DNA of 49,617 nucleotides from a virus. Shown here piece after piece: positions 8,265-45,989 of the stretch. Location: positions 1 through 49,617 of IMG/VR virus record IMGVR_UViG_3300013772_000010, one strand, 5' to 3'. How positions within the stretch are numbered: position 1 is the stretch's first letter; each line of letters opens with the position of its first letter. The position numbers and the translations under genes were made by a program. The notes below the pieces were generated by a model, which saw nothing but the letters and a program-made list of their open reading frames with translations, made no database searches and was not told where the DNA came from.

Positions 8265-8282
8265 TTTTATTATTTTAGCGAT

Positions 8283-24210: not shown

Positions 24211-24417
24211 CTATGCGTTATACTTTTTCTTGTTTTTATTTTGTTTACTTGCTACTTCTAATTGTACTTGTTCTTCGTGCGAAATAGGACGAGTATCCTG
24301 ATGGACAATAATATTCGTCGCCATCGAGAGGATTCCTAAGATTTCTATTGCACTCAGCTCTCCGTCTGAACCATCAATCTCGAGAGTTCCGGTTTCATCG
24401 TTATAGATTATGATTAT
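24211..24417 (-). CDS. 68-aa protein with apparent AUA start
   Basis: No ATG suits this frame except an internal one giving 37 residues. The frame codes convincingly from ATA 24417 (IIIIYNDETGTLEIDG...) to TAG 24211. The ATA overlaps the TAA of the upstream coiled-coil gene, exactly where an ATG would sit in the usual overlap of this operon. The product has an acidic beta-hairpin start, a hydrophobic helix (AIEILGILSMAT) and a Lys/Asn-rich tail. No family recognised. The start is uncertain. Confidence 0.5.
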   Translation of the reverse strand: MIIIYNDETGTLEIDGSDGELSAIEILGILSMATNIIVHQDTRPISHEEQVQLEVASKQNKNKKKYNA

Positions 24418-33508: not shown

Positions 33509-33823
33509 ATGAGCAACGAAGTTAAAAAACCAAATCAGATAGAAATTTTTCCAATCGAAAATATTTGCAGCCTCGAAATCAGCGGCGGAATGTCAGCAAG
33601 GTTAATCCAATTATTCAATTACCATGCGTCCATTCATCAGATAATCGCAGGAATGTCCCAAGAGGAAAGTCTTAAAAAGTTCGCTGAGGCAGGTGAAGAA
33701 ATAAAGAACAAGGACGTTAAATCCAGCTATGCCTACCACCTCGAAACTCTTCTTGTGCTTATTAAGAGTACGGAGGATTCTGCGAGAAGTCAAGGAAAAT
33801 TGTCATTCGTAGACCCCCCCTAA
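33509..33823 (+). CDS. Lone plus-strand hypothetical protein, 104 aa
   Basis: ATG 33509 (MSNEVKKPNQIEIFPIENI); an upstream in-frame ATG at 33344 lies within the antisense UDG gene and is unlikely. Mixed alpha/beta, with SSYAYHLETLLVLIKSTED near the end. It is the only single rightward gene inside the leftward block, has its own -7 box and ends 4 bases into the opposing gene. Function unknown. Confidence 0.55.
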   Translation: MSNEVKKPNQIEIFPIENICSLEISGGMSARLIQLFNYHASIHQIIAGMSQEESLKKFAEAGEEIKNKDVKSSYAYHLETLLVLIKSTEDSARSQGKLSFVDPP

Positions 33824-34008
33824 TCAGACTCCTCCTGTAAATTCTTAATCACCTTGTCCACAGTATAAACCGGATCTGTTTCGCTCCTACTCCAATCCCA
33901 AGGAATTTCTACGGGCACTCTTTTTCCTGCCTTTGTTGTGTACATCAACACTTCCTCCTTTTTTACAGGACGTGTAATCCTTTTACGTTTTTTCTTTGGT
34001 TCCATCAT
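33820..34008 (-). CDS. Small basic protein, 62 aa
   Basis: Start ATG 34008 or 34005 (MMEPKKKRKRITRPVKKEE); a longer frame reaching 34131 only overlaps the upstream gene. Very basic N-terminus, then EIPWDWSRSETDPVYTVD. Possibly a nucleic-acid-binding peptide. The stop overlaps that of the convergent gene. Confidence 0.45.
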   Translation of the reverse strand: MMEPKKKRKRITRPVKKEEVLMYTTKAGKRVPVEIPWDWSRSETDPVYTVDKVIKNLQEESD

Positions 34009-34237
34009 ATAGTTTTTCAATTTCCCGCACTGTCCTCTCAATAACAGTGCACAGTTCAAATAGTTTCTGGTACTCCGGTGAATCCGCTTCAAAGTTTGCC
34101 TGCATACCGTGATGCGTTTCCCAAGGAGCACAATAAAGTATTCCTAATTCGTCAGACTCAATCTCAATCATTCCTTTCAGATGTTTGTGGTTGTGAATCT
34201 TAATTTTTATTTCGCTTATAAAAGGCAGTTTGCTCAT
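33983..34237 (-). CDS. Hypothetical protein, 84 aa
   Basis: ATG 34237, ATGA overlap with the upstream gene. Beta-rich N-terminal half (KIKIHNHKHLKGMIEIESDE) and a helical C-terminus (LFELCTVIERTVREIEKLY). No family recognised. Confidence 0.5.
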   Translation of the reverse strand: MSKLPFISEIKIKIHNHKHLKGMIEIESDELGILYCAPWETHHGMQANFEADSPEYQKLFELCTVIERTVREIEKLYDGTKEKT

Positions 34238-34740
34238 TCCTTTTCTTTTAAAGCTGCTTCCAGCGTTGGTACTTCATATATTATTTTCGCCCACTCTCCT
34301 TTACGGTATACAAGAACCCCGTTGAATGTAAAGGAATCCGTCATACAGTAGTAATAAGTTTGCTCCGCCTTCTCACTAAAAGGAGGGAATTCTTCTACTT
34401 GATTGTAAGCGGCGGTTTCCCAAGGAAAAAATATTTTTACTCCCGGTTTAAAATCCATCTCTACGGCACAGGATAATAAGTAATGGTTTATTTGCGCCTC
34501 TGTTGCAAAAACATAGTGGTTTGAACGTCCATCCAAACGAGACACCTGTTCCTTTGTGGTAACACGCATAGTTTGCGCTGTACTTGGAAAATGAATCCAA
34601 CTACCTATTCCTACTTTTTCCTCATAAAAAATCTCAGGAAACAACTTTTCTAAGTATTGTACATAATTGGGAGCAGTATCCACCGCAAATTGGAGGGCAG
34701 CGTAAGATAGTGTTGCTCCTGATTTTAGTTTTTGATTCAT
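34234..34740 (-). CDS. Early protein, paralogue of 37299-37826
   Basis: 168 residues, starting MNQKLKSGATLSY. It shares PNYVQYLEKLFPEIF, STAQTMR, SCAVEM and GVLVYRKGEWA with the gene at 37299-37826, so the two arose by duplication. Conserved Trp/Tyr and Pro positions suggest a compact alpha/beta fold. No motif assigns a function. ATGA overlaps at both ends show it is part of the coupled operon. Confidence 0.55.
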   Translation of the reverse strand: MNQKLKSGATLSYAALQFAVDTAPNYVQYLEKLFPEIFYEEKVGIGSWIHFPSTAQTMRVTTKEQVSRLDGRSNHYVFATEAQINHYLLSCAVEMDFKPGVKIFFPWETAAYNQVEEFPPFSEKAEQTYYYCMTDSFTFNGVLVYRKGEWAKIIYEVPTLEAALKEKE

Positions 34741-35120
34741 ATTTTATTTTTTAAAGCATCCTCCAGCGTGATTATTCCTGCTGCTATTTTTAGTGCTGTT
34801 GATATGTTTTCCGGAGTGTGCCACTGTTCATAAGCATTTTGTTCGTCCACCATACACTTCACATCATCACTCTCCTCACAATAGGCAAGATACCTCTCAG
34901 CATCTGCGAGGTTTTGTTTATTCTTGTCTAATAAATCCCCAACCAATTTTTGATAATACTCTTTTGAACTGTTTTCCATTTTTGTAGTTGTTCTTATTGT
35001 AACATCCGGGTCGCGGACACGGTCTTCTGTGTACATTTTAGACAGCATTGCAAGATATTTCTTATTATCTTCTATAGCTCGCTTTTCGTGTTCTTCTATC
35101 CAAGTTTTTTCTTTGCTCAT
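34737..35120 (-). CDS. Hypothetical helical protein, 127 aa
   Basis: ATG 35120, ATGA overlaps with both neighbours. Charged and helical throughout, with WHTPENISTALKIAAGIITL near the end as the only hydrophobic stretch. Several Tyr/Asp/Glu-rich segments. Function unknown. Confidence 0.5.
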   Translation of the reverse strand: MSKEKTWIEEHEKRAIEDNKKYLAMLSKMYTEDRVRDPDVTIRTTTKMENSSKEYYQKLVGDLLDKNKQNLADAERYLAYCEESDDVKCMVDEQNAYEQWHTPENISTALKIAAGIITLEDALKNKI

Positions 35121-35815
35121 GGTTTTTGGTTTAAAAGATGAATGTCTTCCTCAGACAAGGTGTAACCAAAATTTAGTTGGTATTTGAAGTTTGCAAATAA
35201 ATCCTTCTCTGACATAAACCAAGTAAAATTTATCTTGTAGTAGTCTATACCCAGTTTTGAGGGAATAATTCTGTTTAATCTTACTATATTATTGAAAGAC
35301 TCTGTATACTGTCGTTTTGGGATAGCAAGTAACTGGGAAAGTTCAGCGAAAAAATCATCTTTGACCTCAATCTCCCCTTCTTTGTTGGCTTTGTTAAAAA
35401 TAAATTTAAGTAAGAACCCTTCTTCAAAAGTTAATAGTTTTATACAGACCTCTAATTCGATAAGTTTCAGTAAAAATTCTTTTAGAGTCTTGAACTCTGT
35501 AAGAGTTGTTCCGTGTGTGTACAATTCATTAACGATTACCTCGTTTTCTTCTTTATTTTCTTCAGTGTGTCGAGTTATTATTTGGGTGATGTCCTCTTTC
35601 TTAGGAACTCCCATTTCAAACCACTCTCCTTCCCTACGGAACTCTTTAAAATGATTGTGTAATAACTTTTCGTGATTTCCCTCTACAAAGAAATGAAGAG
35701 TCCCTTTAACAAAATTGAAAGAGCCTCCTAAAGTTTTGACTCTTTTTTCAGGAGTTGCTGAAACCCCAATTTTTACCAGATTGTTTACGCTGTTTGTTGC
35801 GATGTATGTTTTCAT
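35117..35815 (-). CDS. T5orf172/MUG113-type (GIY-YIG superfamily) protein
   Basis: 232 residues. The first ~75 match the T5orf172/MUG113 pattern: YIATNSVNNLVKIGVS, then TPEKRVKTLGGS, NHEKLLHNHF and EGEWFEM. The C-terminal 150 residues are helical with no known domain. Such proteins are GIY-YIG-fold nucleases; in phages they may degrade DNA or be mobile. The leader (35816-35950) has a well-formed promoter and a 13-codon ORF. Confidence 0.65.
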   Translation of the reverse strand: MKTYIATNSVNNLVKIGVSATPEKRVKTLGGSFNFVKGTLHFFVEGNHEKLLHNHFKEFRREGEWFEMGVPKKEDITQIITRHTEENKEENEVIVNELYTHGTTLTEFKTLKEFLLKLIELEVCIKLLTFEEGFLLKFIFNKANKEGEIEVKDDFFAELSQLLAIPKRQYTESFNNIVRLNRIIPSKLGIDYYKINFTWFMSEKDLFANFKYQLNFGYTLSEEDIHLLNQKP

Positions 35816-35864
35816 GTTTAAAAAGTAACCCTACCGAATGCGGCTTCCCAACCGAACTGAAAGT

Positions 35865-35906
35865 TCAAATGGCACAAACGGTAAGGTATATTTTAAATGT
35901 TTTCAT
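35865..35906 (-). CDS. 13-codon leader ORF upstream of 35815
   Basis: ATG 35906 to TGA 35865 encodes MKTFKIYLTVCAI. It is the first ATG of the transcript from the promoter at 35950-35921. A 50-base GC-richer stretch separates it from the ATG at 35815. It may be a regulatory upstream ORF; it is too short to call with confidence. Confidence 0.3.
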   Translation of the reverse strand: MKTFKIYLTVCAI

Positions 35907-35920
35907 GTTGAGAAGCACAG

Positions 35921-35950
35921 CAAATGTACAACTTATTTTAAAACTACCAA
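35921..35950 (-). promoter_or_regulatory. Leftward Bacteroidota-type promoter
   Basis: Minus strand: TTGG at 35950-35947, about 19 bases, then TACATTTG (35928-35921), a perfect TAnnTTTG box. The start site would be near 35915, giving a ~100-base leader before ATG 35815. It is one of the best host-like promoters in the window and starts the group 35815-32546. Confidence 0.55.
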
Positions 35951-36060
35951 GATTCTTTCAGGATATTGTATGTCCTCTGCGTTCTTGCTTGGGTATTCAG
36001 GATGATGTGTGGTGTCTGCGCGTCCGTACAAGACTTCTCCTGCACAAACTCTAAGGTCAA
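35944..36060 (-). CDS. Possible 38-aa protein with TTG start
   Basis: TTG 36060 overlaps the TGA of the upstream gene (TTGA), and the frame reads TLEFVQEKSCTDAQTPHIIL and on to TAG 35944. A second frame over the same bases, in frame with the upstream gene's stop, is also open for 40 codons, so either could be real. Confidence 0.35.
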   Translation of the reverse strand: MTLEFVQEKSCTDAQTPHIILNTQARTQRTYNILKESW

Positions 36061-36443
36061 CGCACGTTTGTACCCACAAAATCACCCACCTCGCACACAG
36101 TTTGAAATACCTGTTGTAGGCGTTTTAAAGACATATCTCCGAAAGAAAGGTAGTCAGCACCACTCATGTACCCTCCCTGTCTCTTGACTTGCTTTTTAAG
36201 CTCCTCTTTAGTCACTCCGGTTTCGTTGGCTATAACACCGATCGCTGCGTGAATCCTTGCTAACATGGTAAGTGTGCCTTCCTCTTCCGCAGCCATATAA
36301 TGCAGCTCGACGGATTGGTTTTTAGCGAGATCCTTCTGAAATTCCTCAAACTGAGCCTTCTGCTGCTTATTCCTGAAACAAAGTTTTGTTCCATCGTAGT
36401 ATAGTTGAGCCGTGTGTACACGTTGTTTATGCTGTTTGCTCAT
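36057..36443 (-). CDS. Hypothetical protein, 128 aa
   Basis: Start probably ATG 36443 (MSKQHKQRVHTAQ); ATG 36479 would add 12 residues and overlap the upstream gene more. Basic N-terminus, helical middle (AAEEEGTLTMLARIHAAIG), then ETGVTKEELKKQVKRQGGYM, a pattern that could be a small HTH. Function unknown. Confidence 0.5.
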   Translation of the reverse strand: MSKQHKQRVHTAQLYYDGTKLCFRNKQQKAQFEEFQKDLAKNQSVELHYMAAEEEGTLTMLARIHAAIGVIANETGVTKEELKKQVKRQGGYMSGADYLSFGDMSLKRLQQVFQTVCEVGDFVGTNVR

Positions 36444-36642
36444 TCCAAAGTTTTTTACGTGATTGTTGCGCGGCATCATTACGGCACTGCATGTGGAATA
36501 GTCCGACCTCTTTACTCATTCCTCCAAAGTCCTTTACGTGGATTGGTTTGTTGCAGTAACCACACAAAACATGCATACCTTCTGAGACATGCTCTATTGC
36601 AGTTAGTTTTTTTAAGACCTTGACTTTCTTCCGCCCTCTCAT
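36427..36642 (-). CDS. Zinc-ribbon small protein, 71 aa
   Basis: ATG 36642, ATGA overlap with the YopX gene. A CGYC pair near residue 32 and HMQC near residue 50 suggest a four-ligand zinc ribbon; the flanks are basic (MRGRKKVKVLKK, QQSRKKLW). Probably binds nucleic acid. Confidence 0.5.
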   Translation of the reverse strand: MRGRKKVKVLKKLTAIEHVSEGMHVLCGYCNKPIHVKDFGGMSKEVGLFHMQCRNDAAQQSRKKLWNEQTA

Positions 36643-37061
36643 TTGAAAAGTTCTGGATTTTCATAAATGTTTCCTACAATAGTGTAGTCTTCCTCGCACC
36701 AACACCCTCCCTCATCTACCATAGAGAGACAATGTAAATGAGACGGAAATTCAAAATCGTAAGCCCCCATTCCCGGGTTAAATATGACTCTGCAAATTTC
36801 CGTATACGGTTCAGGGTCGGTGTCCTCATGGAGGTTGACTATGTCCCCTTCGTATATATCCTTTCCCAGCCTGTCTTTAAACCCAGTGTATTGCATCACC
36901 ACAATATCATTCAGTCTTTCAAGAGTAGTACCGGATTCGCGAGTTTCCTGACAATGCACCTCGATCATGTTGAACATTGTGGTTTCGCCTATTACATGAA
37001 ATCCAGTTGCAATCATTTTCTTTGTCTTGGTGTCCCAAGCCCTAAACATTAATTTTCTCAT
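36639..37061 (-). CDS. YopX family protein
   Basis: 140 residues. The start MRKLMFRAWDTKTKKM is diagnostic of the YopX family, together with MQYTGFKDRLGKDIYEGDIV in the middle and IVGNIYENPELF at the end. ATG 37061 overlaps the upstream stop by ATGA; ATG 37070 is in frame but not needed. YopX proteins are common phage and prophage accessory proteins without a firm function. Confidence 0.85.
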   Translation of the reverse strand: MRKLMFRAWDTKTKKMIATGFHVIGETTMFNMIEVHCQETRESGTTLERLNDIVVMQYTGFKDRLGKDIYEGDIVNLHEDTDPEPYTEICRVIFNPGMGAYDFEFPSHLHCLSMVDEGGCWCEEDYTIVGNIYENPELFK

Positions 37062-37213
37062 GCTGCCCATATATTATTTTTGTTTAAATTAAGTATGCAC
37101 GGATTTCTGTGCCACAGACTATCGCAGTGTTTGCAATAACACCCGTTTAATCCTACGGACTTCATACGTTTTCCACATTTGATGTGTACCATAAATTTAC
37201 CTACTTCTTTCAT
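37058..37213 (-). CDS. Small zinc-finger-like protein, 51 aa
   Basis: ATG 37213 to TGA 37058, overlapping both neighbours by ATGA. Cys at HIKCGKRMK, CYCKHC and RNPC could bind zinc. Its sequence, KFMVHIKCGKRMKSVGLNG, resembles short phage zinc ribbons. Likely nucleic-acid binding. Confidence 0.5.
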   Translation of the reverse strand: MKEVGKFMVHIKCGKRMKSVGLNGCYCKHCDSLWHRNPCILNLNKNNIWAA

Positions 37214-37302
37214 CTATTTCTATGTTTAAATCCTAAATAACTCTGATGACATACAAACAATGTCAGAAGCAAGATAAAGGATGCTGTGTGTATGTTCATC
37301 AT
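37210..37302 (-). CDS. 30-aa hydrophobic peptide
   Basis: ATG 37302 or 37299 to TGA 37210. Product MMNIHTASFILLLTLFVCHQ then a basic end, a single membrane helix. Start and stop overlap both neighbours (ATGATG and ATGA), so it is translated if the operon is. Possible toxin-like or membrane micropeptide. Confidence 0.45.
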   Translation of the reverse strand: MMNIHTASFILLLTLFVCHQSYLGFKHRNR

Positions 37303-37826
37303 TTCCTTACAAGTTTATATTCAACTCCTTTAATAGTTACTGTTGTAGTTTCTGCGGTTATTTCCGGAACTATGCTCGCCCACACACCTTTGCGGTACAC
37401 AACGACTCCTTGAAATTCAAAGTAATCACCGTTCTTGTGGTACAAAGTCTCTCCGTTAAATTCAGGATATTCAATCTTTCGTTCAGGCGCGCCAGTACTC
37501 CAAGGATAATCTATACCTAATCCTTTTTTGTATCCCATCTCTACTGCACAGGAAGTCAAGTAGTGTCTTATTTGGGAAGCAGATGCGTGCCCGTACGCAG
37601 CAGCCCCCCGCTCTGCTAAACGTTTTACCTGATCTGTATCAGCAAGTCGCATGGTTTGTGCTGTGGACGAAAAGTATATCCAATCTCCTACCTCTAACGA
37701 AGCCTTTTCAAATATCTCAGGAAACAGGTGTTCCAAATATTGCACGTAATTAGGATTATTAGCAACAGCTATTCGCAAATCTGCATGAGATAGCGATGCG
37801 TTGTCTTTTAGTTTTGTTTCTCTCAT
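37299..37826 (-). CDS. Early protein, paralogue of 34234-34740
   Basis: 175 residues. Shares PNYVQYLEHLFPEIF, STAQTMR, SCAVEM, YPW and GVVVYRKGVWAS with the gene at 34234-34740, with a different C-terminus (TTTVTIKGVEYKL). The two paralogues are 2.6 kb apart within the same operon direction. Function not recognised. Confidence 0.55.
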   Translation of the reverse strand: MRETKLKDNASLSHADLRIAVANNPNYVQYLEHLFPEIFEKASLEVGDWIYFSSTAQTMRLADTDQVKRLAERGAAAYGHASASQIRHYLTSCAVEMGYKKGLGIDYPWSTGAPERKIEYPEFNGETLYHKNGDYFEFQGVVVYRKGVWASIVPEITAETTTVTIKGVEYKLVRK

Positions 37827-38062
37827 ATCTCTCCGCGTTCTTGTTTCATACGGTCAGATGCGTCCTGTAAATCGAGAAAATAAAAAAATCCTTCTTCCCG
37901 GATTTGATAGTCCGTTTTCCAAGATTCGGTTTGAAACCCCATCAAGCGTACCGGTTTATTCTCATCATCTTCGTAATTTCCGAATATGAGTTCAGCAGTA
38001 TCTCCGTTGCGAATAACTGTTTTGTACATGAACTCTGTAAGAGTCATTTGTTTTCTTTCCAT
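37823..38062 (-). CDS. Hypothetical protein, 79 aa
   Basis: ATG 38062 with ATGA overlap downstream. Acidic, aromatic-rich (GFQTESWKTDYQIREEGFFY). No family recognised. Confidence 0.5.
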   Translation of the reverse strand: MERKQMTLTEFMYKTVIRNGDTAELIFGNYEDDENKPVRLMGFQTESWKTDYQIREEGFFYFLDLQDASDRMKQERGEI

Positions 38063-38081
38063 CTTCTAAATTTTAAATTGT

Positions 38082-38315
38082 TTAATTATTAAACCAAAAA
38101 GTCTCGTACCCGACTACTTTTATAAAAGGAGCTTCATGTCTTTCCTCCGCATTTAATACTTCTAATACAGCATATCTGACTGCGGAATTAAAAATCCAAT
38201 TTTCCTTATAAGTGTCTGGAGCGGTTCCTAAGAAGCAACCTTCTACAATAACAGCCGTGACTCTGTTAGGAAATGGTTGCACTGCGTGGATGAGTTCTTC
38301 ATGTTTGATTATCAT
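38082..38315 (-). CDS. Hypothetical protein, 77 aa
   Basis: ATG 38315, 10 bases after the pyruvyl transferase gene. Contains NRVTAVIVEGCFLGTAP, a hydrophobic beta segment, and AVRYAVLEVLNAEERHE. It could belong to the glycan group, but no motif supports this. Confidence 0.45.
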   Translation of the reverse strand: MIIKHEELIHAVQPFPNRVTAVIVEGCFLGTAPDTYKENWIFNSAVRYAVLEVLNAEERHEAPFIKVVGYETFWFNN

Positions 38316-38325
38316 GGTGTTTGTT

Positions 38326-39087
38326 TTAAACCCTAAAAGGGCAACTTTCCAAAAGTTTATCCAAATTTAAGTTAATTTCCTTTTGTTTCGGTATCCAATC
38401 TATTAATTGTTGTGTAGAGTATTCCTCAACCGAGTAATCCAAAGGAGAATAAAGTTCATGCCCCACACTAAGTAAATAGTCCTTATATTTTGTACCATCT
38501 CCAATTATTTTATCTGAGAATGTTACATACCCGCAAGATTTTCCGTATGCGTGAGCAACAATTATACCATGCAAAGAGGAACTAATAAAAACATCACAAG
38601 ATAAAACCATATCAACCACCTGCTCTATCCCACTAAGTAAATCTACAACCAAAACGTCGGGGTTATTCTTATACCGTTCCGATACTTCGATATAATCTAT
38701 GAAATGAGGAATGATTCCTAACTTATAAGACATAGGCAACGCTTTTCCTGTATAAAAACGGGGGAGCAGTAGGCAAGGATCTCCAAAGGTTTCAGGGCAG
38801 TCTAACCCTCCGTCTACAAGAGATTTTCGTGTTAATGGTCCACGTACGGCACAGATCTCCAAAGGATTTCTAACATACACATCTGCCCAAGCTAATCCTG
38901 TTCCCCACACTACACAAGTATCAGCAACCGGTTCGTTCAGGATACTTCCTGTTACCATGTATTTAGGCAACGTGTGGTTATCTGTCCAAACCGCTTTCTT
39001 ACCTGTTATTTTTTCTATCAGATAGGGGGTTAAAGCATCTCCAAAGTTGGAATGATTCATCCAATATGCAGGAATATAATTAAGCAT
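38326..39087 (-). CDS. Polysaccharide pyruvyl transferase family protein
   Basis: 253 residues. Typical features are NFGDALTPYLIEKITG near the start, VVWGTGLAW, EICAVRGPLTRKSL, the GDPCLLLP loop, and VFISSSLHGIIVAHAYGK, the CsaB/PssM-type donor-binding segment. Members add ketal-linked pyruvate from PEP to surface sugars. It overlaps the methyltransferase-like gene by 8 bases and belongs to a five-gene glycan cassette. Confidence 0.8.
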   Translation of the reverse strand: MLNYIPAYWMNHSNFGDALTPYLIEKITGKKAVWTDNHTLPKYMVTGSILNEPVADTCVVWGTGLAWADVYVRNPLEICAVRGPLTRKSLVDGGLDCPETFGDPCLLLPRFYTGKALPMSYKLGIIPHFIDYIEVSERYKNNPDVLVVDLLSGIEQVVDMVLSCDVFISSSLHGIIVAHAYGKSCGYVTFSDKIIGDGTKYKDYLLSVGHELYSPLDYSVEEYSTQQLIDWIPKQKEINLNLDKLLESCPFRV

Positions 39088-39664
39088 GTTTAGGTATTAT
39101 AAATACACAACCTCTTTTAGCTCCCGTGGCTTCTGAGTTATAGTAATATCTATAACCCCCAACACCGTAAATAGCATCAACTTTTTCGGAAATCCAATTC
39201 CACTCATAGACAATGCCTTGTTCAGGGTATGTGTCATACCCAAGCTCAGGGTGATCAGGAACTTTAAAATCGTGTATAACCAAAATGGGTTTTATCCCTG
39301 ATTCTTTTATCTGATCGAGTTCTCGAAGTACCGGATTTGCGGACCAATGTGCGTCTAAGAACACCAACAGCGGAACATCGTTCCAATCCCTTATAGCAGT
39401 AATCAAATGCTCTGCGGAACTACATTGGAGTGTAAGTACATTTTCTTTTTTTCCAATTTGAGGGTACGTTAGTTTTAAATACTCAGGATTGATTTCAAGT
39501 GTCCTCACTTGTTTAAAGTTATCAGCTAACCAAGAGGTTGTATATCCGTGATGTGTTCCAGTCTCAATTACATGCGTAATTTTGTACTTATCTTTCAAAG
39601 AAAGAAACTCTTTCTCCATAAAAATATCCCCGTTAAAAGGAACCCCATTGCCCAACATTTCCAT
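39080..39664 (-). CDS. SAM-dependent methyltransferase, sugar-modifying type
   Basis: 194 residues. Motif I VIETGTHHGYTTSWLAD, acidic motif VRTLEINPEYL, then LLVFLDAHWSANP and LVIHDFKVPDHPELG, matching class I methyltransferases found in O-antigen clusters. It lies between the pyruvyl transferase and a glycosyltransferase. Substrate is probably a sugar of the same glycan (inferred). Confidence 0.7.
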   Translation of the reverse strand: MEMLGNGVPFNGDIFMEKEFLSLKDKYKITHVIETGTHHGYTTSWLADNFKQVRTLEINPEYLKLTYPQIGKKENVLTLQCSSAEHLITAIRDWNDVPLLVFLDAHWSANPVLRELDQIKESGIKPILVIHDFKVPDHPELGYDTYPEQGIVYEWNWISEKVDAIYGVGGYRYYYNSEATGAKRGCVFIIPKHA

Positions 39665-39673
39665 ATATGCGTT

Positions 39674-40618
39674 TTAGTTAATAATTTTTGTCAAGTCGTC
39701 TAATCGGGTTTCCCAAGTATGTTTGGTGGACACTAAGTACTGCCCTGCTTCTGCTATACCTCGTCTTTCTGCTTGGTTTTGTGGTGCAAGATAATAATCT
39801 ACCATTGAACTGAGTTCTTCAAAAGTTTTCCACACTCGAAGATGTACACCATCTATGAAGTCTTCTTCTATTTTAGGATACCATTTTGTAAGACAGAAGG
39901 CGCCAGTACCCATCATCCTAAAGATTCGATCAGAACTATACTTGTCGTAATCAAAATGAGAAAGGTTAACCGCAATTTTACAACCCCTGTAACAATCAAC
40001 CTCTTTGTTTAAGTCTCCCATTAAAGACCCGTTTCCAGAATTCCAATTGTTTCCATATACACCAAACCTATTCTTATACTTTTCTTTTAAGTATTGTACC
40101 ATCTGCTCTCGTAGGGGGGAAAGTGGAAAAGTATTACGGTAATTGTTCCCCAAAAAAACAATTTCCTGCCACGTAGAAATGCTTTGTCCGGGTCTGAACA
40201 CTTCTTGGTCATAACCTATCTGCAAATAATCTGCCTTCACCCCCTGCTCACAGACTGTTCTTACATCATTTTCGTTAGAAAACAAGGTCACATCAATCAC
40301 TTTTCCAAGAGTTACGAACCAAGACGGAGTTGGGGATCTGACATCTCCGGACCAATTAACAATAATTGTTTTATGCTCAGGATGAAGCGCTCGTATCTGA
40401 GAAATTAAGGCAGGAGTAATTATGTCCGCAGTTTGTATCTGCATAAAAACAAGGTCGTATTTAATGTCTTTATAATAATCTAATATTTGTTTGTACAATT
40501 CACTTAGATTGTTTTGGTATTTTGTCCACTCAATAAACGTATAAACAGAGTATTTGTTCTTGAACGCACGTTCCAAAGGAATTTGAGAGAAGCCTATGTG
40601 CAGTACACTTTGTATCAT
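39674..40618 (-). CDS. CgeB-like GT-B glycosyltransferase
   Basis: 314 residues. N-terminal Rossmann-like part with LVFMQIQTADIITP and IVNWSGDVRSPTPSW, C-terminal part with IVFLGNNYRNTFPLS, GCKIAVNLSHFDYD, SSDRIFRMMGTGAF and a late GVHLRVWKTFEE, the pattern of the CgeB/GT group 1 family. Transfers a sugar from an NDP donor. Overlaps the next gene by ATGA. Confidence 0.75.
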   Translation of the reverse strand: MIQSVLHIGFSQIPLERAFKNKYSVYTFIEWTKYQNNLSELYKQILDYYKDIKYDLVFMQIQTADIITPALISQIRALHPEHKTIIVNWSGDVRSPTPSWFVTLGKVIDVTLFSNENDVRTVCEQGVKADYLQIGYDQEVFRPGQSISTWQEIVFLGNNYRNTFPLSPLREQMVQYLKEKYKNRFGVYGNNWNSGNGSLMGDLNKEVDCYRGCKIAVNLSHFDYDKYSSDRIFRMMGTGAFCLTKWYPKIEEDFIDGVHLRVWKTFEELSSMVDYYLAPQNQAERRGIAEAGQYLVSTKHTWETRLDDLTKIIN

Positions 40619-41367
40619 ATCAATTCTTTATGGAAGTTTGGATGAGATTTTAAATAGTCAGGGAGGGTGTTTTTGTCGAAAGCAACGGGGCGTTCCCAAA
40701 TTCTGTCTGAGATCGGATGTAAGAATGTTATTTCCTCAATCTTTTTAGGAGTCCATTTATAAAAGATGTGGTCAAGATATTGCTTTCGTACTTGCCAAGC
40801 GTGTCCGTACACCCGTAGTTTATAGCGCATGACACTTTCTTTCTGTGCGCTTCCGAAATGTAGAATACCTAAATTACTTCCGGTTCCTCTAATGGGGTTA
40901 TGTACATGAAGGTTCTCTAATCTGAATGGTTTAAACTCATCGTACATCGCCCAGTCAAAAGAGCGAAATAGGTGTATAAATCCTCCTGTCCCCTGAATAC
41001 GCTCTTTACTTTCAAGGGTGTGTTTTATTGCTTCTTCTATTGTGTTCTCAATAAGCACTTCGTCAGAGTCTAAAGAAAGTGCAATATCCATACCATGAGT
41101 GTGTTTATGAACCATAAACCGGTGACTTGGTTCGTTGGGAAATGTTTTGTGTGTTTCCCATATTAATTTATTTCCAAGTACGTCTTCTGCGATAGTCCTC
41201 AGTTCTTCCTCTGTATCGGGACAAGGTTGGTCAAACTGAAATCCATGACTGTGATTTTTACTATAACAAACATAGTGTTTGTCTACATGGTCTCTAATTG
41301 AAAGTAGGGACTCACGAAAATATTCGCAGCCATAATGAAGCGGAGTGAATCCTAATATTTTTGTCAT
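40615..41367 (-). CDS. GT-A glycosyltransferase-like protein
   Basis: 250 residues. MTKILGFTPLHYGCEYF start, then ALSLDSDEVLIENTI, where DSDE acts as the DxD metal/NDP-sugar motif. The rest is aromatic and His-rich. Overlaps its neighbours by ATGA. Donor and acceptor unknown. Confidence 0.65.
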   Translation of the reverse strand: MTKILGFTPLHYGCEYFRESLLSIRDHVDKHYVCYSKNHSHGFQFDQPCPDTEEELRTIAEDVLGNKLIWETHKTFPNEPSHRFMVHKHTHGMDIALSLDSDEVLIENTIEEAIKHTLESKERIQGTGGFIHLFRSFDWAMYDEFKPFRLENLHVHNPIRGTGSNLGILHFGSAQKESVMRYKLRVYGHAWQVRKQYLDHIFYKWTPKKIEEITFLHPISDRIWERPVAFDKNTLPDYLKSHPNFHKELI

Positions 41368-41987
41368 TGCACAAGAAGGGATGTAGGTTCAACCATAAGA
41401 TAAGGAGCCGGAATAGAATCCCTTCCTGAAACATAGTTCCGTACACCTGTCAAATGCAGATGACAGAATTTTACATCTTTAGAGGGATTGCTAACTTCGT
41501 ACCCTGCTTGTTGTAGTCTGTACGCAAAAGCGTTATCACATCCGGGAATCGCAAGGTAAAAGTTACTACTCACTTTTTTAATGGGGGCTCGAAAGCACCA
41601 AGTGTCAGCAGTATCCTTTCTACAAAAATGAACAAGGCTTCCGTCTGCTTGTACATCCCACCTACTAAGCGCCCATGCTTGGTTAGGTTGTATTCTCTCC
41701 AACTGTGTTCGAGTCTTAGGGGCAGGAAAAATATCAATGTTATTTATTAGTACTACGTCTCCCGCCTCACTCACGGCGTTTGCTAACAGAATAAAATCAT
41801 CGTAAGTGACGCGAGTAGAAACCGGTATCTCCTTTAATTTTTCGTGCATGATCGGCGCGGGAGCCTCACACAATAAATACACAAAATCAATATCCTGACT
41901 ATCACAACATTTTTGTATGCAGGTTATAAGTTCAGCACGTCTTGCGTCGTTAGGTTCGTTGTACCAACTTGTGAAATACCTTATCAT
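41364..41987 (-). CDS. Glycosyltransferase-like protein of the glycan cassette
   Basis: 207 residues. N-terminal MIRYFTSWYNEPNDARR, then VVLINNIDIFP (a DxD-like place), ALSRWDV and PGCDNAFAYRLQQAGYEV, a layout typical of short GT-A-like transferases encoded by phages and capsule clusters. No metal motif is fully canonical. Co-translated with the next gene by an ATGA overlap. Confidence 0.6.
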   Translation of the reverse strand: MIRYFTSWYNEPNDARRAELITCIQKCCDSQDIDFVYLLCEAPAPIMHEKLKEIPVSTRVTYDDFILLANAVSEAGDVVLINNIDIFPAPKTRTQLERIQPNQAWALSRWDVQADGSLVHFCRKDTADTWCFRAPIKKVSSNFYLAIPGCDNAFAYRLQQAGYEVSNPSKDVKFCHLHLTGVRNYVSGRDSIPAPYLMVEPTSLLVQ

Positions 41988-42136
41988 ACTTTTAACGCTT
42001 TAGCAATTAAACCTTCAATAAAAGCCTGAATAGGCATACCTGTTTTCTCTTTGTCTTTACGTACCGCCTCTACAAACGGAGCTCCTATTTTAATAGAAAC
42101 AGTGTTGTATGAGTATTTCTTTTTAGCTTTTTTCAT
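41984..42136 (-). CDS. Ribbon-helix-helix small protein, 50 aa
   Basis: Start ATG 42136 (MKKAKKKYSYNTVSIKIGAP); a longer frame to 42226 only reads through the 12-mer region. The strand SYNTVSIKIG followed by a helix and TGMPIQAFIEGLIAKAL fits the ribbon-helix-helix fold of Arc/CopG repressors. It lies first in the glycan transcript, 11 bases from the 12-mer, so it may autoregulate. Confidence 0.55.
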   Translation of the reverse strand: MKKAKKKYSYNTVSIKIGAPFVEAVRKDKEKTGMPIQAFIEGLIAKALKV

Positions 42137-42146
42137 ATTGAGGGTA

Positions 42147-42158
42147 AAAGTAGTAAAA
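42147..42158 (-). promoter_or_regulatory. Copy 2 of 12-mer AAAGTAGTAAAA
   Basis: Exact copy, 10 bases upstream of ATG 42136 at the head of the glycan cassette. A partial second copy, GTGGTAAAAG, follows at 42165-42174. The RHH protein encoded just downstream is a candidate binder. Confidence 0.5.
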
Positions 42159-42192
42159 TAGGTGTGGTAAAAGTCAGATGTTGAAAACTTAC

Positions 42193-42420
42193 TTATTCTA
42201 TTTCCTTGTTTAAAATATCGAGGCACTCGGATAGCTTGGTGCGCGTTGGGTTGGGCGCAGGGTCATAAACATACGGACATCTTTCGCACACCTGCAAAGC
42301 AAGTTCAACCGCTATTTTGACGCAAGCGGTCGCGTCCTTCCAATATGTGTCGTCAAACTTAGCAAATTTTAATATCAACTCCTCCACTATTTCGGGTGCT
42401 GTTTTTGTCAGATCTATCAT
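42193..42420 (-). CDS. Hypothetical protein, 75 aa
   Basis: ATG 42420, with TAAATTTA, a near -7 box, 5 bases upstream on the minus strand. Helical, with several Cys in CERCPYVYDPAPNPTRTK. Small Bacteroidota phage protein of unknown function. Confidence 0.5.
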   Translation of the reverse strand: MIDLTKTAPEIVEELILKFAKFDDTYWKDATACVKIAVELALQVCERCPYVYDPAPNPTRTKLSECLDILNKEIE

Positions 42421-42468
42421 GTTTGTAAATTTAGATTATTATTTCTCTTTGTCCCATCTTGAAGGGGG

Positions 42469-42682
42469 TTAATATTCTTTAATTATCTCTCTTTTTTCGG
42501 TTAAATCGCCTCTGTGTTTTAATATTTCATGTTCCGCTTCGCTCTCGGATGGGTACATAAATCCTGTTAAATTTGACCAATATTTATTCCACAGAAAACT
42601 ACGCTGTATCATTGGAGCATAAAAAACCGAACCTTCTTCCGTAGTAACTTTTTCAATCCCATACTTCTTCTACTACTAACAT
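42469..42682 (-). pseudogene. Frameshifted small early gene
   Basis: ATG 42682 overlaps the upstream stop (TAATG) and codes MLVVEEVWD before TGA. A +1 shift gives KYGIEKVTTEEGSVFYAPMI, RSFLWNKYWSNLTGFMYPSE and an end in KEY with TAA at 42469, which looks like the rest of the protein. So a one-base indel broke the gene, or it restarts at ATG 42612 (47 residues). Confidence 0.5.
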
Positions 42683-42852
42683 TATTTTTCTGGATAAAAA
42701 ACTACAATTCCGCATAATACTAAAGTGGAAATCATAAAACTAAAGAACAAAAATTTAGCTAAAGATTCATACCCTAAATATGATGCGATTACCATACTTA
42801 CCATAATGACAAGCATTGCGTAAAGTGTTTTGCCTATTAAATTATATTTCAT
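42682..42852 (-). CDS. Small two-helix membrane protein, 56 aa
   Basis: ATG 42852 to TAA 42682. Hydrophobic segments LYAMLVIMVSMVIASYL and FLFFSFMISTLVLCGIVVFY; ends PEK. Its leader is the same 25 bases as that at 43559-43583. Unknown function. Confidence 0.5.
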   Translation of the reverse strand: MKYNLIGKTLYAMLVIMVSMVIASYLGYESLAKFLFFSFMISTLVLCGIVVFYPEK

Positions 42853-42874
42853 CGTTTTATGTTTTAAGGTTTAA
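42850..42874 (-). repeat. 25-base leader repeat, copy A
   Basis: Contains the start codon of the gene at 42852 and 22 bases upstream. All 25 bases are identical to 43559-43583. A degenerate copy lies at 43386-43410. The A-rich sequence on the minus strand is probably a copied translation-initiation leader. Confidence 0.6.
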
Positions 42875-43388
42875 CTTCTGGCTTATCGGATTGGAATAAT
42901 TTGGCATCAAGCCATTTATCAAATTCTTCTTTGGTGTAAATAGTAAGATAATCATATCCTTCATTAAACAAATCTCTTACGGCTGATATTGATAGTTTAC
43001 CTTCAACCTCCTCCTCCGAAATATCTGATTTGGGTTGGAACTTAATAAGCCTTCCTTCGATAGCATCGTCAAACATTTTAATTAACTTATTTGCTTTGGC
43101 AGTAGTTTTTGCTTTTTCAATCTCTCCCTTACTAACATCTCTTTCCTCCTGCTTTGGTAACTCTTGGGTGTATTTATTGAACTCAATAGCCTCCTTCTCC
43201 GCTTCTATTGGTTGCATTGCCAACATGGATTGATAGTAATTTTCAAAAGAGGGTTGTGCGGGACAGCTTTTAGTGCCCCCATCCAACAACCTGTCAATTT
43301 CCTTGTTTCGTTCGGAGGCTCTTTCGCCTGCCTGATAAGCATCTTGTAAGATTGCTTTAAACTCTTGCTCCGTTAATGCTGTTTTCAT
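42864..43388 (-). CDS. Modular helical early protein, 174 aa
   Basis: ATG 43388. Contains TQELPKQEERDVSKG and SDISEEEVEGKLSIS, segments shared with the gene at 43831-44391, set in otherwise different sequence. N-terminal helix (MKTALTEQEFKAILQDAYQA) and C-terminal helical part. Looks like a mosaic early protein built from shared blocks. Unknown function. Confidence 0.55.
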   Translation of the reverse strand: MKTALTEQEFKAILQDAYQAGERASERNKEIDRLLDGGTKSCPAQPSFENYYQSMLAMQPIEAEKEAIEFNKYTQELPKQEERDVSKGEIEKAKTTAKANKLIKMFDDAIEGRLIKFQPKSDISEEEVEGKLSISAVRDLFNEGYDYLTIYTKEEFDKWLDAKLFQSDKPEVKP

Positions 43389-43405
43389 CGTTTATATTTT
43401 TAAGT

Positions 43406-43561
43406 TTAATTTAATGATTCTATTAACGCCTCACATTCACTCATAGTTCCTCTATATATTTCGTAATGATTAGAGTAAAGAGAATTAAATGTTATAACCT
43501 TATATAAAACAACTTGTGTTGTTTGAGCATTAATATCATAAACAGGTTGTATGCTATACAT
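43406..43561 (-). CDS. Small hypothetical protein, 51 aa
   Basis: ATG 43561 to TAA 43406, MYSIQPVYDINAQTTQVVLY then a strand and a short helix with SECEALIESLN. Its leader is the 25-base repeat copy B. Unknown function. Confidence 0.45.
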   Translation of the reverse strand: MYSIQPVYDINAQTTQVVLYKVITFNSLYSNHYEIYRGTMSECEALIESLN

Positions 43562-43583
43562 CGTTTTATGTTTTAAGGTTTAA
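43559..43583 (-). repeat. 25-base leader repeat, copy B
   Basis: Identical over 25 bases to 42850-42874, including the ATG of the gene at 43561. The genes behind the two copies are unrelated, so only the leader was copied. Confidence 0.6.
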
Positions 43584-43590
43584 ATTTTAA

Positions 43591-43824
43591 TTAAATAACG
43601 TAAGGCAATTCGTCTGTCCAACCGAGTGGCTTTATTTTATATGAGGCAATTTTTTGTCTGTATAAATCCCGCCTTCTTTTTGGTAATTCATCTACGGCTG
43701 AATCTAAAAAGCCTAACAAAGCAGCTTTAGTTAAAGTCAAATTATTCACCTCTTTTTTGAGCTTGATAATAATATCATCATTTGTTTCAAACTCTTTAAT
43801 GCAATATTTTATTTCGTCTTCCAT
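43591..43824 (-). CDS. Coiled-coil small protein, 77 aa
   Basis: ATG 43824. Helical heptads (NDDIIIKLKKEVNNLTLTKA) and a basic second half (RRRDLYRQKIASYKI). Possibly a dimeric regulator. No family recognised. Confidence 0.45.
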   Translation of the reverse strand: MEDEIKYCIKEFETNDDIIIKLKKEVNNLTLTKAALLGFLDSAVDELPKRRRDLYRQKIASYKIKPLGWTDELPYVI

Positions 43825-43830
43825 CCTGTT

Positions 43831-44391
43831 TTATTTTGTGCCCGCCTTTGAGTGTTGGAGAAGATAGTCGCGTCCTGTTAATTCCAAAACATACCCCGCC
43901 ATTTCCATACAAGATTTCATTGGTTCTTCCGTAAACTCACTCGTAAAGCCTTTAGTTAATTCAAATACGCAGGTTGCTTGGCTTCTGATATATTTTCTTC
44001 TATCAATCTTCTCCTCCGAAATATCTGGTTTGGGTGTGATAAGTTTTGCAAGCTCTATGCAAAATTTGTGTTTATCAAAAGTTCCATTAAACAAATATTT
44101 GTCTAATAAAATCATAATATTGTCTTCTATCTCATCGTTTGCTAAACGTGCGTTTAGGAGCTGAATTTTCTTTAAGCAGTCAATACAAATTTCGTGTGTT
44201 TCTTTTTCTTCGTCACAATTTACACAAACTGGCTTATCCCCCGCCCTACCCTCTCTTTCCTCCTGCTTTGGTAACTCTTGGGCGTACTCGGTTAATAAAC
44301 TTTCAAGCGATTCAAATAAATCTAATCCTCCGTTGAAAGACTTATAACTTGAATATCCTTTGTCGATTAAAAATTGTTTAGGTGTTTTCAT
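43831..44391 (-). CDS. Modular early protein with zinc-knuckle, 186 aa
   Basis: ATG 44391. The start TPKQFLIDKGYSSYKS is followed by AQELPKQEEREGRAG (shared with 42864-43388), then CVNCDEEKETHEICIDCLKK, a CxxC...CxxC zinc site, and KPDISEEKIDRRKY (second shared block). Unknown role; a zinc-dependent scaffold or RNA-binding protein is possible. Confidence 0.55.
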   Translation of the reverse strand: MKTPKQFLIDKGYSSYKSFNGGLDLFESLESLLTEYAQELPKQEEREGRAGDKPVCVNCDEEKETHEICIDCLKKIQLLNARLANDEIEDNIMILLDKYLFNGTFDKHKFCIELAKLITPKPDISEEKIDRRKYIRSQATCVFELTKGFTSEFTEEPMKSCMEMAGYVLELTGRDYLLQHSKAGTK

Positions 44392-44398
44392 GTAGTTG

Positions 44399-44632
44399 TT
44401 ATTTGGTTATACGATTAAATTTATACTCCCGTTTTGCATCCTCTTTAAGTTTATCTATCTCGGCTTTAAGTTCTTTTATCTCCTTCGCCTGTTCTTCGAG
44501 TATTTTAGCAATGTCATGAGCCGAATGAATATTTGCTTCATTAACTCCTCTAAATTGTTCCTGATATTTATTTAAAATATCAATTATCGTTTCCTCTCTT
44601 GTCATAGTTAGTGTTTTAAAGGTTGTTTTCAT
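44399..44632 (-). CDS. Coiled-coil small protein, 77 aa
   Basis: ATG 44632 or ATG 44605 (MTREETIIDILNKYQEQF). The C-terminal half is a coiled coil (EIKELKAEIDKLKEDAKRE). It begins in the tail of the upstream gene. Unknown function. Confidence 0.45.
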   Translation of the reverse strand: MKTTFKTLTMTREETIIDILNKYQEQFRGVNEANIHSAHDIAKILEEQAKEIKELKAEIDKLKEDAKREYKFNRITK

Positions 44633-44831
44633 TCAGGAAATTGCAAATTGCTATCATTCTTTTGTTATTCGCCGCGATCCACGCCTTTTCATGTTTCTTA
44701 CTCATCTTTTCTACTTCCTCATCATCAGGAAGAAATGCTTCTATCACTCCTTTTGTGTATCCCGGAATATCTGTTTCCTCCGCGATTTGTAGAATTATTG
44801 TACTTACTACCACTGTTACGTATTTACTCAT
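44616..44831 (-). CDS. Small hypothetical protein, 71 aa
   Basis: Start taken as ATG 44831 (MSKYVTVVVSTIILQIAEE); an in-frame ATG at 44861 lies in the upstream gene's tail. A hydrophobic beta strand, then acidic EAFLPDDEEVEKMSKKHEK and a helical end. Unknown function. Confidence 0.45.
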   Translation of the reverse strand: MSKYVTVVVSTIILQIAEETDIPGYTKGVIEAFLPDDEEVEKMSKKHEKAWIAANNKRMIAICNFLNENNL

Positions 44832-44842
44832 TGTGAATATTT

Positions 44843-45442
44843 TTAGTGTGTTCCGTCCCAAATGGGGTACCGGCGGTGAATTTCTTTATTATATGCAGTT
44901 ACCATACCTGTATTGTCACTTTTTCCATCATGTTGGAGCGCAATAAAAGGAAAAGAAGTGTAGCACTTGGCGTTTGTTAAGTCTTCCGCAGTTAAAAAGT
45001 GGTCAATATTGTATCTTTCGTCGGCGGCAAGAAAAGTATCGTAGAACCTTTCCTGCACTATGTAGCAAAAGAACCCTGCATGTTTTCCTTTTCCCACAGC
45101 AAGTCGTGGAGTTATAGGGGTAAATTCTCCGCTATATCCGCCCCCCAGATACAGATCGGCATCAGAGGGTACTTCGGTAACGAATATATCTAAAAACCGC
45201 TTAAAAGCACCTTTCTGTGGGAACCAAACATCGTTTTCTAATATGCACACCCAAGGCTCTCCCCGCTCTTTCGCAATACGCACGCAACCTTTATGGGATA
45301 AACTGATGCCTTTTCTCGCGAAGGATGGAATCATTATAGCAGGAAATACCTCGTACTCCTGAATATTTTGCTCGGCGAATTCCTTTTTGAAGGACAACTC
45401 CCGCGTCTTGTTTGCTATATCGTGTATAACAAATGTCAACAT
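44843..45442 (-). CDS. GT25-type glycosyltransferase
   Basis: 199 residues. ISLSHKGCVRIAKERGEPWV and CILENDVWF correspond to the G-x-x-x-SH and EDD-like motifs of glycosyltransferase family 25 (LPS biosynthesis). Also PSDADLYLGGGYSGEF and YNIDHFLTAEDLTN. It lies apart from the main glycan cassette, 2.9 kb upstream in the same direction. It may act on the same glycan. Confidence 0.7.
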   Translation of the reverse strand: MLTFVIHDIANKTRELSFKKEFAEQNIQEYEVFPAIMIPSFARKGISLSHKGCVRIAKERGEPWVCILENDVWFPQKGAFKRFLDIFVTEVPSDADLYLGGGYSGEFTPITPRLAVGKGKHAGFFCYIVQERFYDTFLAADERYNIDHFLTAEDLTNAKCYTSFPFIALQHDGKSDNTGMVTAYNKEIHRRYPIWDGTH

Positions 45443-45798
45443 CGCTTCAATCTTTTTATAAGCTCATCCGCCCCTTCTACACAGTAATCTGCTAACAGTT
45501 CCATATTCATAGCTGCATGTGGTGCATGTTTTACCATAATGGATGTTGCTATCTTTGTTCTGAGTTGTTCGTCAGGAGATTGTATGGGGATGAGGGGTGA
45601 GGCTTTCATTTTGGATAACGCCGCTTCAACCTCTTCGTTTGAATAGATCTTACGTTCTAAGGTCGCGACGGGGATTATCCTGCTTTGGATGTACTTCTCT
45701 AACTTATCAGGAAGCTCCTGTTCGAATTTCTTTGGTGTTCTTTTGATGTACGCAACCAGTTCGGTTATTGACATCTCTAATTTAAAATGGTCACTCAT
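45436..45798 (-). CDS. Hypothetical protein, 120 aa
   Basis: ATG 45798, overlapping both neighbours. Helical; MSITELVAYIKRTPKKFEQE near the start and AAMNMELLADYCVEGADELI near the end. The pattern SNEEVEAALSKMKASP resembles small accessory proteins in Bacteroidota phages. Unknown function. Confidence 0.5.
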   Translation of the reverse strand: MSDHFKLEMSITELVAYIKRTPKKFEQELPDKLEKYIQSRIIPVATLERKIYSNEEVEAALSKMKASPLIPIQSPDEQLRTKIATSIMVKHAPHAAMNMELLADYCVEGADELIKRLKRC

Positions 45799-45989
45799 AG
45801 TTCTTTTGTTTTTCTTGTTACACGAAGTTCATGCATAAACCGCGCTAAATCTTCGTCTGTTAAATGTGTCCGTCCTTCTTTGTAATCTCTTTGTAGGCGT
45901 TTCCACAGTCCGTTGTCTCCCGCAATTGCTTTAGCTTCCTCTTCAGAGAACGGAATATCCGGTTTAAATTCTTCTTCGTTATTTTCCAT
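45795..45989 (-). CDS. Small acidic protein, 64 aa
   Basis: ATG 45989. Begins with an acidic block (MENNEEEFKPDIPFSEEEAK) and ends basic (RVTRKTKEL). ATGA overlap with the downstream gene. Unknown function. Confidence 0.45.
   Translation of the reverse strand: MENNEEEFKPDIPFSEEEAKAIAGDNGLWKRLQRDYKEGRTHLTDEDLARFMHELRVTRKTKEL

What the first reader, a model, noticed from the sequence alone, without database searches (positions are those of the whole stretch)
38326..42136. Phage-encoded surface-glycan cassette
Five overlapping or nearly touching genes encode a polysaccharide pyruvyl transferase, a methyltransferase, and three glycosyltransferase-like proteins, with an RHH protein and a 12-mer at the head. 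A GT25-type gene lies 2.9 kb upstream. This is a full modification pathway rather than a single enzyme. It could remodel the host capsule to block other phages, or decorate phage particles or DNA.
Basis: partly seen in the sequence, partly recalled or inferred. Interest (0 to 1): 0.62.

Follow-up and report, generated by a model that had tools for sequence, protein, structure and literature searches.

The report
Phage-borne glycan-building gene cassette
A crAss-like environmental phage carries a tightly packed set of sugar-transferring and sugar-capping genes; close relatives of three of them sit beside the capsid genes of many unrelated freshwater phages and were almost never found in bacteria, so they may coat virus particles with sugars rather than only remodel the host surface.

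Summary
Five overlapping or touching minus-strand genes (38326-41987) encode a polysaccharide pyruvyl transferase, a SAM-methyltransferase and three glycosyltransferases (GT): one GT-B (PF13524) and two GT-A folds with no Pfam family. The window is a fragment of a crAss-like phage. The 50-aa RHH gene and the 12-mer are real but not conserved with the cassette. A 'full pathway' is not supported: no nucleotide-sugar epimerase in the window or in the one complete cassette-bearing relative (126.6 kb).

That relative keeps four of the five genes (42-52% identity) at a different genomic position; 29 other related phages and the 19 records searched earlier lack the cassette. It is a patchy, mobile module.

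New evidence: the GT trio recurs in >100 environmental viral loci. In 29 of 35 non-redundant loci with the 250-aa GT it lies inside head-gene operons of two different types, beside the major capsid or virion protein. The only bacterial-genome hit is itself a viral contig. This favours virion decoration; host-surface remodelling stays a serious rival because here the cassette lies on the replication-gene strand and carries the capping enzymes. DNA modification is unlikely. The acceptor is untested.

The parts
41364..41987 (-). 207-aa GT-A-fold glycosyltransferase ('GT207'); conserved N-x-D-I, ALSRWD, QDxWxF and GxxGxDN motifs
   Evidence: 196 viral homologues; AF2 pLDDT 95.5, PDB fold hits ppGalNAc-T2 and chondroitin polymerase; fused to the GT-B in L061/G025 and L140 and to the GT25-like domain in L181
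40615..41367 (-). 250-aa GT-A-fold glycosyltransferase ('GT250') with invariant DxDE; no Pfam family
   Evidence: 154 viral homologues, alignment A3, AF2 pLDDT 85, best PDB folds SunS/ThuS S-glycosyltransferases; one hit in bacterial genomes, itself viral
39674..40618 (-). 314-aa GT-B glycosyltransferase, Glyco_trans_1_2 (PF13524)
   Evidence: E 1.2e-19, over cut-off; sister to the G025 copy, 51% identity
39080..39664 (-). 194-aa SAM-dependent methyltransferase, probably a sugar O-methyltransferase
   Evidence: weak RMNT_CmcI / Methyltransf_24 and catechol O-methyltransferase matches; 52% identical copy in G025
38326..39087 (-). 253-aa polysaccharide pyruvyl transferase (PF04230), SSSLHG motif
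   Evidence: E 9.1e-10, over cut-off; 279 viral homologues; 50% identical copy in G025
44843..45442 (-). 199-aa GT25-like glycosyltransferase, probably in the same pathway
   Evidence: Pfam GT25 below cut-off; homologue in G025 (38%); GT25-GT207 fused ORF in L181
41984..42136 (-). 50-aa ribbon-helix-helix protein overlapping the first GT gene; probable local regulator, not conserved with the cassette
   Evidence: CopG_antitoxin 21.9 bits, below cut-off; no homologue in any cassette locus
42147..42158 (-). 12-mer TTTTACTACTTT upstream of the RHH start
   Evidence: 4 exact copies in the window, all intergenic; none in five related phages

Best explanation
The genes form a virus-adapted glycosylation module in a crAss-like phage. 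Three cytosolic glycosyltransferases (207-aa and 250-aa GT-A, 314-aa GT-B), probably with the nearby GT25-like enzyme, build a short oligosaccharide from the host's sugar nucleotides. The methyltransferase and the pyruvyl transferase then cap it, adding O-methyl and acidic ketal-pyruvate groups. The most likely acceptor is a phage virion protein (head or head-attached), so that particles carry a methylated, negatively charged sugar coat. SHOWN: the genes, their families or folds, the conserved compact order, fusions between the enzymes, patchy distribution with changed position, and residence of the homologous GT trio in head-gene operons of other phages. INFERRED: order of action, acceptor, chemistry, and benefit (shielding, stability, binding).
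For: The GT trio recurs in viruses: of 125 loci with the 250-aa GT, 96 carry genes of one head operon type (in 53 of 53 with both sides in view the GT lies between major capsid protein and head-tail connector) and 21 carry genes of a second, different head operon (17 of 17 between virion protein and portal); 29 of 35 non-redundant loci. The 250-aa GT is virus-restricted as far as searched: 154 IMG/VR hits, 1 hit in 84,980 bacterial and archaeal species, a contig with terminase and phage genes, and nothing else in 398 genomes of that phylum by profile search. Fusions GT207-GTB and GT25-GT207 tie the enzymes to one pathway. No nucleotide-sugar epimerase. Nearest folds include enzymes that glycosylate proteins, SunS/ThuS and ppGalNAc-T.
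Against: In the window and in G025 the cassette is not in a head operon: it lies on the strand of the replication genes, away from the plus-strand block. None of the 125 loci with the 250-aa GT carries the pyruvyl transferase or the window-type methyltransferase, so the capping enzymes cannot be tied to head operons. GT-A fold matches do not identify the acceptor. No glycan has been measured. The head-operon loci were collected by homology to the 207- and 250-aa GTs, and many are close kin.
Confidence: 0.48

Rival explanations
1. Host-surface remodelling. Expressed from the replication-gene strand, the enzymes extend and cap LPS or capsule precursors with methyl and pyruvyl groups, so that the infected cell no longer binds rival phages (superinfection exclusion) or released progeny are not lost on debris.
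For: Cassette on the replication-gene strand. A homologous pyruvyl transferase in a 462-kb phage sits in a cluster with a DAHP/KDO-type synthase, a CTP-transferase, a SIS-domain protein, Capsule_synth, sulfotransferase and GTs, i.e. surface polysaccharide genes. Precedent: LPS-type clusters in jumbo cyanophages, read as host-surface modification (PMC7824862). crAss-like isolates infect Bacteroidota (hosts), where phase variation of capsules is tied to crAss001 persistence (PMC8375218, abstract).
Against: The 250-aa GT is essentially absent from bacterial genomes, unexpected for a captured LPS or capsule gene. No epimerase; no convincing membrane segment in any of the proteins, so no flippase or priming enzyme in the cassette. 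The same trio lies in head operons elsewhere.
Confidence: 0.37
2. DNA hypermodification. The enzymes glycosylate modified bases of phage DNA to block restriction.
For: Phage GTs can glycosylate DNA (known for T-even phages; general knowledge, also cited in PMC12619734), and the strand is that of the replication genes.
Against: No thymidylate-synthase-family (hydroxymethylase) gene in the window or in complete G025. Pyruvyl transferase and an O-methyltransferase point to a polysaccharide-type glycan. Homologues sit in head operons.
Confidence: 0.05
3. Neutral or non-functional cargo, acquired by chance and without a role.
For: Patchy distribution: one of 30 larger relatives.
Against: All frames intact, catalytic motifs conserved at 42-52% identity between two phages, G+C matches the phage, same compact order retained.
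Confidence: 0.05

Closest known systems
Virion glycosylation in mycobacteriophages (Freeman et al. 2023, cited in PMC12619734; original not held)
   Same: Phage-encoded glycosyltransferases and glycans on capsid and tail-tube proteins
   Different: Different host group and GT set; here methyl and pyruvyl capping enzymes are added, and the 250-aa GT family has no match among cultured phages in INPHARED
LPS/capsule-modification clusters of jumbo cyanophages (PMC7824862)
   Same: Several GTs with O-methyltransferases in one phage cluster
   Different: Those have full sugar-production sets (epimerases, isomerases, kinases); no epimerase found here
Pyruvyl-transferase loci of Lak megaphages, the 462-kb phage LR756500 and Cobetia phage Carin-5
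   Same: Homologous pyruvyl transferase, 31-37% identity, beside other glycan enzymes in LR756500 and fused to a GT-like domain in Lak-A1
   Different: The 207-aa/250-aa/GT-B trio was not found there with the window's proteins; LR756500 is KDO/capsule-like
GT207-GTB-GT250-DUF5672 block of freshwater phages (L140-L290, found here)
   Same: Three of five enzymes homologous at about 33-46% identity, compact order
   Different: Located in head operons, nearly always with DUF5672; no pyruvyl transferase or window-type methyltransferase
Cassette of crAss-like phage G025 (IMGVR_UViG_3300009157_000001)
   Same: GT207-GTB, methyltransferase and pyruvyl transferase at 42-52% identity in the same order, plus the GT25-like gene at 38%
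   Different: The two GTs are fused, a 223-aa FkbM-like protein is present and GT250 is missing, and the position relative to the HNH gene differs

Membership tests
Polysaccharide pyruvyl transferase (PF04230) | Match above the curated cut-off and conserved Ser-x-x-His region | tested here: met
   39.3 bits vs 25.3, covering residues 74-185; SLHG conserved in the 5-sequence alignment
Polysaccharide pyruvyl transferase (PF04230) | Transfers pyruvate from PEP to a sugar | not testable with these tools
   needs an enzyme assay
GT-B, Glyco_trans_1_2 (PF13524) | Match above the curated cut-off | tested here: met
   71.1 bits vs 25
Glycosyltransferase family 25 (PF01755), gene 44843-45442 | Match above the curated cut-off | tested here: not met
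   17.4 bits vs 24; works-like claim rests on fusion and homologues only
SAM-dependent sugar O-methyltransferase | Curated family match | tested here: inconclusive
   RMNT_CmcI 17.3 (cut-off 23.2) and Methyltransf_24 16.4 (26.3), both below
GT-A fold glycosyltransferases (207 and 250 aa) | GT-A fold with DxD-type metal motif | tested here: met
   Foldseek prob 1.00 to many GT-A enzymes, TMq mostly 0.35-0.64; invariant D-x-D-E and N-x-D
crAss-like phages (Crassvirales) | Giant RNA polymerase protein and replication-gene set | tested here: met
   RNAP match to Cellulophaga phi14:2 g066 and crAssphage RNAPs; the listed records are crAss-like; DYDFD motif; UDG-like, SNF2 and helicase synteny with relatives
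crAss-like phages (Crassvirales) | Crass-type major capsid protein, portal, terminase | not tested
   not in this 49.6-kb fragment and not examined in G025
Virion glycosylation system | Glycan on virion proteins, lost on GT deletion | not testable with these tools
   only genomic context available
Virion glycosylation system | GT genes in the structural operon (supporting, not strictly defining) | tested here: not met
   not met in the window or G025; met in 29 of 35 non-redundant homologous loci
Jumbo-cyanophage LPS cluster | NAD-dependent epimerase/dehydratase genes | tested here: not met
   PF01370 absent from window and G025
DNA glucosylation system | Base hydroxymethylase of the thymidylate synthase family | tested here: not met
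   PF00303 absent from window and G025

The most novel reading that the evidence does not exclude
A virus-restricted capsid-glycosylation system, with a glycosyltransferase family found only in viruses in these searches, moves as a module between unrelated environmental phages (two different head-module types and crAss-like phages) and coats virions with oligosaccharides that, in the crAss-like lineage, are capped with methyl and pyruvyl groups.
Probability: 0.42. Interest if true: 0.75.

Novelty: new variant of a known kind. Interest (0 to 1): 0.55.

Why it matters
Phage glycosyltransferases are usually read as host-surface or DNA modifiers. A GT family seen only in viruses here, repeatedly placed beside capsid genes in two different head modules in over 100 environmental loci, makes virion glycosylation in freshwater phages directly testable and gives a sequence marker for it. 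In crAss-like phages, whose persistence is linked to host capsules, a phage-made acidic, methylated glycan would be a new element of the virus-host interface.

Tried and rejected
Exact-peptide viral scans with single cassette proteins found nothing; alignments were needed. Megablast of the 12-kb region against phages: no match. tblastn of the GT-B, methyltransferase and 250-aa GT against cultured phages: no match. PDB sequence searches of the pyruvyl transferase, GT-B and 250-aa GT gave nothing usable; only weak catechol O-methyltransferase matches for the methyltransferase; NCBIfam gave nothing. The idea that the cassette is unique to this contig was rejected. Vertical inheritance within the crAss-like clade is not supported: window and G025 are not sisters in the polymerase tree (89/94, long branches), and the 29 other larger relatives searched lack the GTs. 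The RHH and 12-mer as conserved parts were rejected. DNA modification was rejected as leading explanation. Paper searches found no description of this trio or its capsid-gene linkage, but most subscription journals are not held.

Full report
OBSERVATION. The pyruvyl transferase and the GT-B enzyme pass Pfam's curated cut-offs; the methyltransferase and the upstream GT25-like gene are below theirs; the 250-aa and 207-aa proteins have no Pfam family. AlphaFold2 models built from window plus viral homologues (mean pLDDT 85.2 and 95.5) match GT-A glycosyltransferases throughout the top hits, with invariant D-x-D-E and N-x-D motifs. So all three 'GT-like' genes are glycosyltransferases by family or fold. 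Base composition of the block equals that of the phage.

WHAT THE WINDOW IS. It is a 49.6-kb fragment in IMG/VR. The giant plus-strand ORF matches the catalytic RNA polymerase subunit of Cellulophaga phage phi14:2 and crAssphage RNAPs and carries a DYDFD motif. The polymerase, primase, helicase and a UDG-like gene are syntenic with related 65-115 kb contigs. It is therefore a crAss-like phage; its capsid genes lie outside the fragment. Cultured crAss-like phages infect Bacteroidota (hosts listed); the host here is unknown.

POSITION IN THE GENOME. In three relatives the interval between the UDG-like gene and the HNH gene is 2.2-3.4 kb and holds an SNF2-type helicase; in the window it is 12.5 kb, holds the cassette, and no SNF2 homologue was found (the helicase naming is by eye, supported by a Pfam ResIII/Helicase_C match of the G025 gene at 57281-58366). 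No pyruvyl transferase in 24 relatives' records, and no PF13524 or PF00535 match in 19 relatives. One relative has the cassette: G025 (126,634 b, 123-b terminal repeat, so apparently complete). It keeps GT207-GTB (fused, 532 aa), methyltransferase and pyruvyl transferase at 42-52% identity in the same order; an FkbM-like protein is present and GT250 is missing. The cassette lies on the other side of the HNH gene there. Of 29 further relatives of 60-123 kb none has GT207 or PF13524, and window and G025 are not sisters in the polymerase tree (the support is 89/94 and both branches are long). The block therefore behaves as a mobile unit, gained more than once or lost often.

RECURRENCE IN OTHER VIRUSES. 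Profile-based scans of IMG/VR gave 279 pyruvyl-transferase, 196 GT207 and 154 GT250 relatives. Co-occurrence is strong: GTB with GT207 in most loci, GTB-GT250 adjacent in dozens; L084/L140 and L095/L180 have GT207-GTB-PST-methyltransferase. Fusions GT207-GTB (L061, L140) and GT25-GT207 (L181) argue for one pathway. In 125 loci with GT250, 96 contain genes of a head operon with PHROG-confirmed head morphogenesis protein, prohead protease, major head protein, head-tail adaptor, Hc1, Neck1, major tail protein and tape measure protein; whenever both flanks are visible (53 loci) GT250 lies between the major capsid protein and the adaptor. Another 21 lie in a different head operon with another protease family, a virion structural protein and a portal; between virion protein and portal in 17 of 17. 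After removing GT250 sequences over 90% identical, 19 and 10 of 35 loci remain in the two classes. In bacterial and archaeal genomes one GT250 hit was found, and its contig carries a terminase large subunit and further phage genes; a profile search of 398 genomes of that phylum added none. The genome scan used patterns one residue longer than the viral scan, so the contrast is approximate.

INTERPRETATION. The enzymes found are transfer and capping enzymes; no nucleotide-sugar epimerase is present in the window or in G025 and no convincing transmembrane segment in the cassette proteins. Hence, by inference, a short, methylated and pyruvylated oligosaccharide made from host sugar nucleotides. 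The head-operon residence of the homologous trio, and its near absence from cells, make a virion protein the most likely acceptor overall. Against this, the cassette in the crAss-like pair lies on the replication-gene strand, and no GT250 locus elsewhere carries the pyruvyl transferase or window-type methyltransferase, so host-surface remodelling, as proposed for jumbo phages (PMC7824862; LR756500 cluster), remains a serious rival. DNA modification lacks the expected hydroxymethylase.

LIMITS. The acceptor and product are not observed. Loci were gathered by homology to two of the cassette proteins, many are near-identical, and contigs are fragments. The 12-mer (4 intergenic copies, about 0.04 expected) may be a promoter element of this phage, but it is not found in relatives.

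Noticed in passing
window 34234-34740 and 37299-37826 (-): Two paralogous proteins of unknown function, 51% identical over 155 residues, lie 2.6 kb apart in the interval that is expanded relative to other crAss-like phages.
   Followed up: no
window 25914-26789 (-), with 24414-25673 next to it: Ribose-phosphate pyrophosphokinase homologue (phrog_619, also a weaker nicotinamide phosphoribosyltransferase match) beside a 419-aa protein without a family: possible NAD or PRPP salvage pair.
   Followed up: no
window 14108-15061, 20194-20577, 35117-35815 (-): Three mobile-endonuclease-like genes: I-HmuI/NUMOD type, SegE GIY-YIG type, and T5orf172/MUG113 type.
   Followed up: no
window 29241, 42147, 49158 (-) and 47666 (+): Four exact copies of TTTTACTACTTT, all intergenic, three of them just upstream of a gene on the same strand (one near the DnaB helicase start); absent from five related phages.
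   Followed up: partly
window 33516-45979: No homologue of the SNF2-type helicase that relatives carry in this interval was found in the window.
   Followed up: partly
window 46539-46605/46745-46811 and 43123-43172/44237-44286: Local direct repeats of 50-67 bases at 76-86% identity, suggesting small gene duplications in the upstream region; the proteins at 42864-43388 and 43831-44391 are weakly similar.
   Followed up: no
L220 (CAIPPE010000042.1): Contig in a Methylococcaceae MAG that carries a phage terminase, other phage genes and a large glycan-gene block: viral sequence binned into a bacterial genome.
   Followed up: partly
L030 (LR756501, 735-kb phage), 6273-9641: Single 1122-aa ORF that contains a GT207-like domain, with a GT25-like stretch seen by eye, among many other GT genes.
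   Followed up: no
L026 (LR756500, 462-kb phage): Cluster with DAHP/KDO-type synthase, cytidylyltransferase, SIS-domain protein, Capsule_synth, sulfotransferase, GT2 and pyruvyl transferase.
   Followed up: partly
L028 (Lak-A1), 7431-9629, genetic code 15: Pyruvyl transferase homologue inside a 732-aa ORF followed by a GT-like domain, read through recoded TAG codons.
   Followed up: no
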